DNA of 64,000 bases from an uncultured Pelagibacteraceae bacterium (lineage in GTDB: Bacteria > Pseudomonadota > Alphaproteobacteria > Pelagibacterales > Pelagibacteraceae), in contig CABYJU010000003.1 in NCBI GenBank assembly GCA_902519325.1, forward strand, positions 1-64,000. Reading direction: 5' to 3'. The notes under the pieces are model-generated. The model saw nothing but the letters and a program-made list of their open reading frames with translations, was not told the DNA's origin and did no database searches. Both the position numbers and the translations under genes were made by a program. This document shows positions 9,244-11,016 of this stretch, one piece after another (position 1 is the stretch's first letter; each line of letters begins with the position of its first letter).

Positions 9244-10197
9244 TTATATTTTAATTTTATTTAATGCATTATTTTTAAATATATTTGCTTCTCTAATATA
9301 TCTTCTTACCATTTGTGTTGTTTTATGACCTGTCATAGCCATTATGCTTCTCTCATCAGCGCCAGAATCAGCAGCTACTGTAGCAAAACCCGACCTTAAA
9401 CTATGACCTGCAAAATTTTTGTTTTCGATGCCTGCTAACTTTAAATACTCTTTCATTAATAAAACTACAGATTGGTCAGTTAATCTTTTGTTTGTTAATG
9501 ATAAACCTTTAGAAAATCTTCTAAAAATAGGTCCAGACTTAATTTTAGAAATTTCTAACCATTTTTTTAGATTTGTAACAGGACAGTAAATTTCATTTTC
9601 GAAGTAGGGCAGTCCTTTAGTCATTCCTTCTCCGAATTGGTCAGTTTTTGATCTTTTAACAGTGATTTTTAAACCGTCAGGAACAAATTCTAAATCCTCA
9701 CAATCAATTGAAATGATCTCGGTTCTTCTAAAACCTCCTCCAAAGCCAATTAAGATTATTGATTTATCTCTAAGTTTTTTTATTTCCTCAGTTTTTTGTT
9801 CATTTATTACATTAATAATTGATTTTAAATGATTGATTAATATAGGTTTTTTACCTTTTTGAATACTTCCTTTGACCCTTCTAATTCCCATTAAATTTTC
9901 AACGATGATTGGATGTTTTGTGTCAAGATAATGCCCTTTTAGCCTATGAACCATGCTTATTGATACTAATCTTCGTCTTAAAGTGCTTATTTTTGAGTTT
10001 TTAGAGAGATGGGTAAGGTATAAGGAAACTATTTTTGGTTCTGTTGGTAGTGAATTTAACCCATGCTTTGCACAAAAAACTCCGAAGTCTTTAAAGTCTG
10101 ATTTATAAGCTCTTAGAGTGTTATTTGACTTTGAGCTTTTAAGGTTATTTAAAGTTGCCTCATGAAGCAATTTTAGGTCTGTTGTCAGTTCATTCAT
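9244..10197 (-). CDS. Tyrosine recombinase / phage-type integrase
   Basis: A 317-residue site-specific recombinase of the XerC/integrase class. Residues 5-95 form the SAM-like DNA-binding domain. The catalytic domain carries the full set: Arg in GFRRTE (157-158), a candidate Lys in KRSKTDQ (181-187), HSLR (H265, R268), H291 in TGHKTT and the nucleophile Y300 in VRRYIREAN. All residues needed for activity are present. The start ATG is followed upstream by a 15-bp inverted repeat with a 7-base centre, which may be its target or operator. Whether it is a resident recombinase or a relic of an integrated element cannot be told from this window. Confidence 0.93.
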   Translation of the reverse strand: MNELTTDLKLLHEATLNNLKSSKSNNTLRAYKSDFKDFGVFCAKHGLNSLPTEPKIVSLYLTHLSKNSKISTLRRRLVSISMVHRLKGHYLDTKHPIIVENLMGIRRVKGSIQKGKKPILINHLKSIINVINEQKTEEIKKLRDKSIILIGFGGGFRRTEIISIDCEDLEFVPDGLKITVKRSKTDQFGEGMTKGLPYFENEIYCPVTNLKKWLEISKIKSGPIFRRFSKGLSLTNKRLTDQSVVLLMKEYLKLAGIENKNFAGHSLRSGFATVAADSGADERSIMAMTGHKTTQMVRRYIREANIFKNNALNKIKI

Positions 10198-10199
10198 AT

Positions 10200-10236
10200 T
10201 ATTACTATTGATAACAATTAATTATCATTAGTAATA
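10200..10236. promoter_or_regulatory. 37-bp inverted repeat at the recombinase start
   Basis: Arms of 15 bases at 10200-10214 and 10222-10236 are reverse complements at 14 of 15 positions and flank a 7-base centre, CAATTAA. The inner halves read TTGATAA and TTATCA. The site sits three bases upstream of the recombinase ATG, in the short region shared with the divergent small membrane protein. Inverted arms around a 6-8 base centre are the layout of a tyrosine-recombinase core site; it could equally be an operator for autoregulation. Confidence 0.6.
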
Positions 10237-10278: not shown

Positions 10279-10458
10279 ATGACTATAGATGGAGAAATTC
10301 CTACAAGCTATTTTTTAATAATATCTTTAGGATTAACTATACTGAGTTATTTGGTTTACAAAAAAAATGGAAAATCACTAGAAGTATATTTCTTATCTGT
10401 TTTAACAATAATTTTCTATTTATCTTATTTTATTCTAATTTTCGTTGGTCCTAGATAG
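10279..10458 (+). CDS. Small two-helix membrane protein, unknown function
   Basis: An ATG-started frame of 59 codons ending in TAG. It predicts two membrane helices, near residues 11-27 (YFLIISLGLTILSYLVY) and 37-56 (VYFLSVLTIIFYLSYFILIF), joined by a short basic loop (KKNGKS). I do not recognise a family. A nine-codon frame beginning with ATG at 10253 ends in TGA overlapping this start (ATGA), which could couple translation. It is divergent from the recombinase across the palindrome and lies before the structured RNA. A chance frame of this length is possible at this base composition, but the well-spaced hydrophobic segments favour a real gene. Confidence 0.5.
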   Translation: MTIDGEIPTSYFLIISLGLTILSYLVYKKNGKSLEVYFLSVLTIIFYLSYFILIFVGPR

Positions 10459-10540
10459 TTTGTTAACGCTATTCACAGCTGTTAAAAACCCTTAATAATC
10501 AACTATAAAGTGATACTAATCATATTTGCACTATGATAAT

Positions 10541-10740
10541 CTCTTAAATGAATTAAGAGGCAACTCTTAACTGACCATCTGGGGAAAAATCGAGAGATTC
10601 AAGCCCAGAGGGCAGAAAACCACGCAGAGTAGCGCTAAAATTGCGGGGTGGAAGGCATGGCGGTAGCGCATACAACGACGTGCCAAAAAACTACTGATCT
10701 TTGTACCTGAAAAGGTGCAGAGATACAGGGTTTTTTTTTT
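10541..10740 (+). ncRNA. Candidate structured RNA of unknown family, ending in a hairpin and ten T
   Basis: By my count 10571-10690 is about 52% G+C, against about 30% around it. Hairpins follow one another: 10553-10559 with 10564-10570 around GCAA; 10578-10583 with 10604-10609, enclosing a GAGA-capped stem at 10588-10599; 10620-10626 with 10642-10651 (one GGG bulge); 10654-10659 with 10679-10684; and a 12-bp stem 10697-10708 with 10713-10724 capped by GAAA. ACAGGG and ten T at 10731-10740 follow. I looked for hallmarks of RNase P RNA, SRP RNA, tmRNA and common riboswitches and found none; 6S RNA cannot be excluded. It could be a free RNA or a leader of the gene that starts at 10741. Confidence 0.6.
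10697..10740 (+). terminator. Hairpin with GAAA loop followed by ten T
   Basis: Twelve uninterrupted pairs, two of them G-T, form between 10697-10708 and 10713-10724. The T run begins six bases after the stem rather than immediately, which is looser than a classical intrinsic terminator. The alkyltransferase ATG directly follows the T run, so termination here would silence that gene and readthrough would express it. Confidence 0.5.
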
Positions 10741-11016
10741 ATGATCCTTAAAGGAACTAAATTTCAAATTAAAGTTTGGAAATACCTAAAAACAATCAAA
10801 AAAGGTAGTGTTTTAACCTATTCTGACGTCGCAAAGGGTATTAATAAGCCAAAAGCTGTTAGAGCTGTAGCTAATGCTATTGGAAAAAATCCATATGCTC
10901 CTAAAATACCATGCCATAGAGTAATAAGGTCTGATGGGTCTCTCGGAGGATATTCAGGAAAAGGTGGTATAAAAACCAAGAAAAAACTGCTCAAATCTGA
11001 GGGTATTTTGCTCTAA
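10741..11016 (+). CDS. Methylated-DNA--protein-cysteine methyltransferase (MGMT catalytic domain)
   Basis: Suicide alkyltransferase domain of 91 residues that would transfer alkyl groups from O6-alkylguanine in DNA to its own cysteine. The active site is PCHR with C58; the TYSDVAKGINKPKAVRAVANAIGKNP winged-helix segment precedes it (given as 26 residues in two adjoining parts: TYSDVAKGINKPK, then AVRAVANAIGKNP). Alkyltransferase-like proteins have Trp in place of the Cys, so this one should be catalytic. It lacks the N-terminal domain of Ada/Ogt. The ATG lies immediately after a T10 run with no ribosome binding site; an in-frame TGA at 10708 rules out a longer start. Confidence 0.88.
   Translation: MILKGTKFQIKVWKYLKTIKKGSVLTYSDVAKGINKPKAVRAVANAIGKNPYAPKIPCHRVIRSDGSLGGYSGKGGIKTKKKLLKSEGILL

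What the first reader, a model, noticed from the sequence alone, without database searches (positions are those of the whole stretch)
10541..10740. Unidentified GC-rich structured RNA directly ahead of an alkyltransferase gene
In a window of about 30% G+C, 10571-10690 is about 52% G+C and folds by eye into successive hairpins with GCAA-, GAGA- and GAAA-capped loops, ending in a 12-bp stem and ten T. I matched it to no common RNA family. The MGMT-domain ATG is the base after the T run, so this is either a stand-alone RNA whose terminator touches the next gene, or a leader controlling a DNA-repair gene by termination. A tyrosine recombinase and a small membrane protein are the neighbours.
Basis: partly seen in the sequence, partly recalled or inferred. 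Interest (0 to 1): 0.7.

Follow-up and report, generated by a model that had tools for sequence, protein, structure and literature searches.

The report
Known ocean RNA, IMES-2, in SAR11
The structured RNA is real and belongs to IMES-2, a catalogued RNA family whose function I could not find; it looks like a stand-alone gene, present in about half of the sampled genomes of its order of ocean bacteria, and not a switch for the repair gene beside it.

Summary
10546-10686 (+) is Rfam RF02035, IMES-2 (162.9 bits, cut-off 54.7, E 5.8e-43): a known family, function unknown (recalled). It occurs once per genome in 140 of 297 sampled genomes of the order; in a class sample the 3 hits of 385 were all in the window's own family. 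It behaves as an autonomous gene: conserved promoter region, the four Rfam hairpins, a covarying fifth hairpin/terminator outside the Rfam model, and compensating pairing between the loops of hairpins 3 and 4. The leader reading fails: in 34 of 128 distinct loci it follows mnmA with no MGMT in the fetched stretch, and in 11 of 18 MGMT loci without IMES-2 the small gene abuts MGMT. RNase P, SRP RNA and tmRNA exist separately; 6S and Hfq models find nothing. Mode of action is inferred only: a protein-bound structured RNA. Side result: the neighbouring recombinase, with a conserved 33-bp palindrome, lies at a GC-skew switch in 5 complete genomes, a candidate dif/Xer for an organism reported to lack one (PMC2731167, one passage read).

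The parts
10460..10477 (+). upstream element: DnaA-box-like 9-mers (TTATCCACA, often followed by a second, in relatives); here the second (CTATTCACA, 10469-10477) is kept and the first is degenerate
   Evidence: best match to TTATCCACA at -140 to -50 has at most 1 mismatch in 88 of 128 distinct loci (2.0 expected from shuffles); the DnaA reading is recalled
10500..10515 (+). conserved block CAACTATAAAGTGATA upstream of / overlapping the -35 region
   Evidence: GTGAT columns are G 128, T 126, G 128, A 128, T 128 of 128 distinct loci
10534..10542 (+). extended -10-like element TGaTAATCT (TGnTAnnnT); start of transcription expected near 10549
   Evidence: T 107, G 104, T 124, A 97, T 110 of 128 loci; start site inferred, not measured
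10546..10686 (+). IMES-2 RNA as modelled by Rfam RF02035 (four hairpins)
   Evidence: 162.9 bits, E 5.8e-43, model 1-141
10553..10570 (+). hairpin 1, GCAA loop
   Evidence: all cells paired in 46 sequences, 3 of 7 pairs with changes on both sides, 4 never vary
10571..10615 (+). hairpin 2, purine-rich internal loop and GAGA loop
   Evidence: 6 of 11 outer and 3 of 4 inner pairs with changes on both sides; one outer pair (33-64) is unpaired in 29 of 46
10619..10649 (+). hairpin 3; loop bases 10631-10636 (AGCGCU) pair with the loop of hairpin 4
   Evidence: 8 of 8 pairs with changes on both sides; for the loop
10654..10684 (+). hairpin 4; loop bases 10665-10670 (AGCGCA) pair with the loop of hairpin 3
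   Evidence: of 9 pairs 3 change on both sides, 1 on one side, 3 never vary, 2 depart only by unpaired cells (116-134 never pairs); for the loop
10691..10730 (+). hairpin 5, outside the Rfam model
   Evidence: 13 of 15 pairs with changes on both sides, 85.3% of cells paired; model R1 matches 66 of 66 SAR11-titled loci, 63 of them full length
10731..10740 (+). T run of the intrinsic terminator, touching the next ATG
   Evidence: T run of 5 or more in 81 of 91 loci of this type, 12 of 34 after mnmA, 2 of 2 in g2
10741..11016 (+). neighbour, not part of the RNA gene: MGMT-domain protein
   Evidence: PF01035, 111.5 bits; also in 18 of 20 g1 genomes without IMES-2, one match each

Best explanation
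10546 to about 10740 is one gene for IMES-2, a free-standing structured RNA of about 190 nt of SAR11 bacteria. Its own promoter starts transcription near 10549; the RNA folds into five hairpins, the loops of hairpins 3 and 4 pair with each other, and the fifth hairpin with its T run ends the transcript at the start codon of an unrelated gene. Shown here: family, single copy, covarying structure, compensating loop pairs, conserved promoter-like region, changing neighbours. Inferred: the transcript ends themselves, and (about 0.4) that the compact RNA works as a protein-bound particle or protein decoy rather than by base pairing to mRNAs. In the lineage of the window some MGMT mRNA may come from read-through of the terminator. 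The confidence given is for 'stand-alone IMES-2 gene, not a leader'.
For: Rfam match far over the cut-off. Covariation: 39 of 60 pairs change on both sides, 90.7% of 2733 cells paired, 0 of 500 shuffles as high, partners slid by 1-3 columns pair in 33-46%. Loop-loop pairing: 126 of 128 distinct loci keep at least 4 Watson-Crick pairs, with GCGC/GCGC, GUAC/GUAC, GCAC/GUGC and UCGC/GCGA types. Conserved promoter block. Changing place: before MGMT in 90 of 128 distinct loci, after mnmA in 34, where no MGMT lies in the fetched stretch and the next gene is on the other strand in 32, on the same strand in 1, not seen in 1; other neighbours in the 2 g2 loci. Empty site: in 11 of 18 MGMT loci of g1 genomes without IMES-2 the upstream small gene lies 0-19 bp from MGMT. 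Against a classic Hfq-dependent small RNA: Hfq model in 0 of 32 genomes.
Against: No transcript data could be read here; expression rests on recalled metatranscriptome work. In 90 of 128 loci MGMT does follow within a few bases, so some coupling there is not excluded. Many genomes, at least 20 of the window's own genus, lack the RNA, so its function is dispensable. Nothing measured supports protein binding. After mnmA the T run is often missing (22 of 34 lack five T), so the 3' end there may be made otherwise. Some pairs of the drawn structure are not supported (33-64, 86-126, 116-134).
Confidence: 0.85

Rival explanations
1. Cis-acting leader: a switch or attenuator that controls the MGMT gene by termination.
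For: MGMT follows within a few bases of the RNA end in 90 of 128 distinct loci, with the terminator between and no obvious ribosome site of its own at 10741 (by eye).
Against: After mnmA (34 of 128 loci) no MGMT lies in the fetched stretch and the next gene is mostly on the other strand. In the g5 genome G038 MGMT and IMES-2 lie at 67.7 and 250.3 kb of the same contig. MGMT is kept in 18 of 20 g1 genomes without IMES-2, directly behind the small gene in 11 of these 18. An alternative antiterminator fold was not looked for.
Confidence: 0.06
2. A functional stand-in for 6S RNA: it binds RNA polymerase and acts as a global regulator.
For: RF00013 finds no 6S in 40 of 40 SAR11 genomes, while it rings in 5 of 14 controls, Caulobacter and E. 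coli among them; single copy, own conserved promoter region.
Against: Shape is five hairpins in a row with a loop-loop contact, not one rod with a central bubble (6S shape recalled). The 40 genomes held 27 with and 13 without IMES-2 and neither group has detectable 6S, so the two do not alternate; the 6S model may simply miss SAR11 6S.
Confidence: 0.12
3. A trans-acting small RNA that base-pairs with mRNAs through its conserved loops or the AGAAA linker.
For: Near-invariant unpaired stretches (linker 71-73, loop of hairpin 4).
Against: Hfq model in 0 of 32 genomes; many of the conserved bases are in stems, tetraloops or the loop-loop pairs; no long open seed seen. Targets were not searched for.
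Confidence: 0.2
4. A divergent form of a housekeeping RNA (RNase P, SRP, tmRNA).
For: Stand-alone, structured, single copy.
Against: These are found at other places in the same genomes: tmRNA 14 of 14, RNase P RNA 13 of 14 (missing in the 64% complete own genome), SRP RNA 12 of 14, 8 of them over the cut-off, missing in G048 and G090.
Confidence: 0.01

Closest known systems
IMES-2 RNA motif, Rfam RF02035
   Same: Full-length match, all four hairpins and loop sequences.
   Different: The alignment here adds a fifth covarying hairpin, a promoter block, a loop-loop contact that the cmscan structure line does not show, and host, copy number and context. Whether the original description already draws these could not be checked.
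IMES-1 RNA, Rfam RF02034
   Same: Named in the same series (recalled).
   Different: Not the same RNA: 1 of 35 genomes gives a weak match (27.4 bits, cut-off 81).
6S RNA, Rfam RF00013
   Same: Free-standing RNA of similar length (recalled).
   Different: No match and another architecture (recalled).
Yfr103 of marine picocyanobacteria
   Same: Stand-alone structured RNA of unknown function in an abundant ocean bacterium, with a region upstream of its start site that might be a factor binding site (passages of PMC5069720).
   Different: 290-328 nt, seven paralogues in Synechococcus CC9605; no comparison of sequences was made here.

Membership tests
IMES-2 (RF02035) | covariance-model score over Rfam's gathering score of 54.7 | tested here: met
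   162.9 bits, E 5.8e-43, positions 1-141 of 141
IMES-2 (RF02035) | four successive hairpins of the model, supported by covariation | tested here: met
IMES-2 (RF02035) | abundant transcript in ocean metatranscriptomes (recalled) | not testable with these tools
   no transcript data at hand
MGMT leader / riboswitch | constant position ahead of the controlled gene | tested here: not met
   90 of 128 distinct loci before MGMT, 34 after mnmA without it in the fetched stretch
6S RNA (RF00013) | model match | tested here: not met
   no 6S match at the locus up to E 5; 0 of 40 genomes
6S RNA (RF00013) | binding to RNA polymerase | not testable with these tools
   needs a bench test
RNase P / SRP / tmRNA | this locus is the genome's only copy of that RNA | tested here: not met
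   found elsewhere in 13, 12 and 14 of 14 genomes
phage- or plasmid-borne RNA | occurrence on phages or plasmids | tested here: not met
   no blastn match in the phage and plasmid collections; the 17 viral contigs that hold an 18-base pattern have no model match

The most novel reading that the evidence does not exclude
IMES-2 is the core of a so far unknown ribonucleoprotein or protein-decoy system of streamlined ocean bacteria in which neither Hfq nor 6S RNA is detected: a compact RNA held by a loop-loop contact, under a dedicated, possibly DnaA-responsive promoter, carried as a roughly 280-bp transcription unit that is gained and lost at a few chromosomal places.
Probability: 0.25. Interest if true: 0.75.

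Novelty: already known. Interest (0 to 1): 0.42.

Why it matters
IMES-2 is a catalogued RNA without a known function (recalled) from some of the most abundant bacteria of the ocean. Knowing that it is one single-copy gene with its own promoter region, a loop-loop fold and natural presence/absence among close relatives gives handles to test it: an HTCC1062-like genome lacks it, and relatives carry it in a site that is empty in others. The neighbouring recombinase and palindrome at a GC-skew switch bear on a printed statement that Pelagibacter ubique has no dif/Xer system.

Tried and rejected
Origin of replication: the DnaA-box-like element suggested oriC, but the locus lies where GC skew goes from + to -, as at a terminus. 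Rejected.

6S replacement by distribution: 6S was not detected with or without IMES-2, so there is no alternating pattern.

Divergent IMES-2 in genomes without a match: a relaxed search of 36 genomes gave weak scores in 12 (at most 14.5 bits), and 10 of 14 controls rang too. The wider model R1 on 31 genomes rang in 5 at E up to 5: three at E 2.9 or more, and two in g2 at 19-21 bits at places other than the true g2 copies, which its first look missed. So R1 does not prove absence. Those two g2 places are AT-rich and match no Rfam family; they were left.

IMES-1 as counterpart: 1 weak match in 35 genomes.

Small peptide in the RNA: by eye, the only frame of some length starts in the variable stem of hairpin 4, and its ATG is lost in g5/g6 (GGCTTGG, GGTTCGG).

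Literature: searches by name found no paper on IMES-2 in the held library; the one hit is a squid genome (listing only), those are unrelated. Searches looked for SAR11 small RNAs. PMC2864571 has no 'IMES' in its main text. The original descriptions (Weinberg 2009, Shi 2009) are recalled, not read.

Recount: the 132 'distinct' loci held four genomes twice (L155, L183, L195, L214). One search removed them; the report uses its counts over 128.

Rows dropped: L050 (cut by a contig end) from all alignments; the two g2 sequences from A2 because MAFFT misaligned their hairpin 2; L186 and L141 (cut) from the neighbour counts; L172 from the terminator count. Only 20 of the 157 genomes without a match are named in its table, so the share of the window's genus that lacks the RNA is not known.

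Full report
WHAT IS THERE. The stretch is about 52% G+C in a region of 19-30% and folds far better than shuffles of itself (-71.4 kcal/mol, z -5.9, 0 of 200 shuffles as low). cmscan against Rfam 15 matches 10546-10686 (+) to RF02035, IMES-2, over the whole model at 162.9 bits (cut-off 54.7, E 5.8e-43). The other three matches at the locus, of animal snoRNA and microRNA families, are far below their cut-offs (E 0.04 to 3).

WHO HAS IT. One match was found in each of 140 of 297 genomes drawn from the order, and in 75 of the 150 that are at least 90% complete. They lie in genera g1 (the window's), g2, g5 and g6 of one family; g2 is divergent (62-69 bits). In a sample of 385 genomes of the class, 3 match: the own genome and the two g2 genomes (strict filters). 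The extended model R1 matches all 66 that are titled Pelagibacteraceae, Pelagibacter or Pelagibacterales, and 0 of the 14 titled otherwise and 0 of 17 viral contigs. The phage and plasmid collections hold nothing similar. G011, of the window's genus, is very probably HTCC1062: its tmRNA, SRP RNA and RNase P RNA lie at 10.2, 493.6 and 39.1 kb, where the HTCC1062 table of PMC2704228 puts them (passages read). It has no IMES-2 match; the passages of that paper that I saw, a survey of structured RNAs in HTCC1062, do not mention it either.

STRUCTURE. 46 sequences of g1, g5 and g6 were aligned. With the Rfam helices, a fifth hairpin and a loop-loop helix, 90.7% of 2733 cells pair, 39 of 60 pairs change on both sides, and no shuffle of 500 reaches any of the five measures; slid partners pair in 33-46% of cells. 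The structure was drawn from Rfam and from these sequences, which favours it somewhat. RNAalifold recovers hairpins 1-4 and part of 5 unaided. Hairpin 5 lies 3' of the Rfam model; 13 of its 15 pairs change on both sides, although g5 and g6 are not in perfect register there. Against the drawing: 116-134 in hairpin 4 never pairs, the outermost loop-loop pair 86-126 pairs in 1 of 44, and 33-64 in 17 of 46. In 128 distinct loci the two loops come as AGCGCU with AGCGCA (66), AGCGCC (31) or AGCGAC (2), AUCGCU with AGCGCA (17), AGCGAG (3) or AGCUGA (1), AGUACU with AGUACU (4), and AGCACU with AGUGCU (3); 126 keep at least 4 Watson-Crick pairs, L048 has 3, and L172 is broken. In the GCAC/GUGC class (L036 and the two g2 loci) neither loop can pair fully with itself, so what is kept is loop 3 with loop 4, not two identical loops of a dimer.

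ITS OWN TRANSCRIPTION UNIT. Aligned on the promoter block, GTGAT is all but invariant in 128 loci (one column has 2 exceptions), and an extended -10-like TGnTAnnnT follows at a spacing that puts the start near Rfam position 4 (start inferred). Some 70-90 nt upstream of the RNA, TTATCCACA occurs with at most one mismatch in 88 of 128 loci against 2.0 expected from shuffles; it looks like a DnaA box (recalled; no binding is shown). In the window the first box is degenerate. A T run of five or more follows hairpin 5 in 81 of 91 loci outside mnmA and g2, 12 of 34 after mnmA and 2 of 2 in g2 (L172 left out).

NOT A LEADER. MGMT follows on the same strand within -2 to +22 nt of RNA position 191 in 90 of 128 loci; in 37 the fetched stretch has no MGMT (35 of them with more than 400 bases downstream), in 1 it starts 192 nt on. 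In 34 of the 37 the gene before the RNA is mnmA (named by me from its sequence, not by a family search), and the next gene is on the other strand in 32, on the same in 1 and not seen in 1. In the 2 g2 loci the neighbours are others again. In 18 MGMT loci of g1 genomes without IMES-2, the small membrane-protein-like gene abuts MGMT in 11 (0-19 bp), where the window has 282 bp; in 2 it is 487 and 952 bp off and in 5 it was not found in the stretch. On a tree of recombinase plus MGMT (49 loci with, 17 without) at least 9 changes of state are needed, and one clade of 'without' is rejected (AU p 0.0016, quick tree); recombination at the locus could inflate this.

NOT A KNOWN HOUSEKEEPING RNA. In 14 genomes tmRNA was found in 14, RNase P RNA in 13 and SRP RNA in 12. 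6S was found in 0 of 40 genomes, 27 with and 13 without IMES-2, and Hfq in 0 of 32, 16 with and 16 without; 5 of 14 control genomes rang for each. So the RNA is unlikely to be an Hfq-type small RNA, and it does not alternate with 6S. That it works through a bound protein is the likeliest remaining mode, but it is inference.

SIDE RESULT. The recombinase beside it (PF00589, 70.5 bits; XerD model 71 bits against a cut-off of 330) has an imperfect 33-bp palindrome, 13-bp arms around 7 bp, directly before its start (10202-10234; none in 100 shuffles of the window). With up to 4 mismatches it is found in 69 of 128 IMES-2 loci, all among the 94 not after mnmA (one strand only, and some stretches are too short to hold it), and with at most 2 mismatches in 20 of 20 loci L108-L127. 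No second copy, and no second recombinase by tblastn, was seen in 1.2 Mb of other stretches of three genomes, about 30% of each. In five complete genomes the maximum of cumulative GC skew over about 80 kb lies 1.5-3.7 kb from it, and coding strands mostly point at it from both sides. Coarse whole-genome samples show a + to - switch there in G015, G011 and G026, though G026 has another near its record start and G015 a weaker one. The five share synteny and gene orientation drives part of the skew, so they are not independent. No viral contig holds the site exactly. [quoted passage not shown] PMC3025954 had no mention of the terms SAR11 or Rickettsiales. A single recombinase linked to its own site is the pattern of XerS/difSL (abstract of PMC2731167), and XerL is a single-recombinase system missed by earlier searches (passages of PMC9765430). 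I hold this a good candidate, untested; canonical XerC/XerD were not searched for in whole genomes.

VERDICT. Ordinary as to identity (a known family), of moderate interest for the added anatomy, context and distribution; the function remains open.

Noticed in passing
window 9244-10234: Tyrosine recombinase with a conserved imperfect 33-bp palindrome (10202-10234) just before its start, at a + to - GC-skew switch in 5 complete SAR11 genomes: a candidate single-recombinase dif/Xer system in an organism that PMC2731167 says has none.
   Followed up: partly
window 10460-10542: Conserved promoter region of IMES-2 with DnaA-box-like 9-mers in most relatives and a GTGAT block invariant at 4 of its 5 columns in 128 loci; the factor that reads it is unknown.
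   Followed up: partly
SAR11 genomes, 32 and 40 searched: No Hfq (PF17209, 0 of 32) and no 6S RNA (RF00013, 0 of 40) detected, while tmRNA, RNase P and SRP RNA mostly are.
   Followed up: partly
L172:263-386: 5' half of IMES-2 fused to a recombinase reading frame within the loop of hairpin 3; may be a single-cell amplification chimera or a real rearrangement.
   Followed up: no
L132:1501-1590 (G052): Weak IMES-1 match, 27.4 bits against a cut-off of 81.
   Followed up: no
window 10279-10458: Small membrane-protein-like ORF of 59 aa, often kept between recombinase and MGMT with and without IMES-2, without Pfam or NCBIfam match.
   Followed up: no
L133:1501-1644, L134:1501-1631 (-): Two AT-rich places in the g2 genomes with weak R1 matches (19-21 bits) and no Rfam family.
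   Followed up: no
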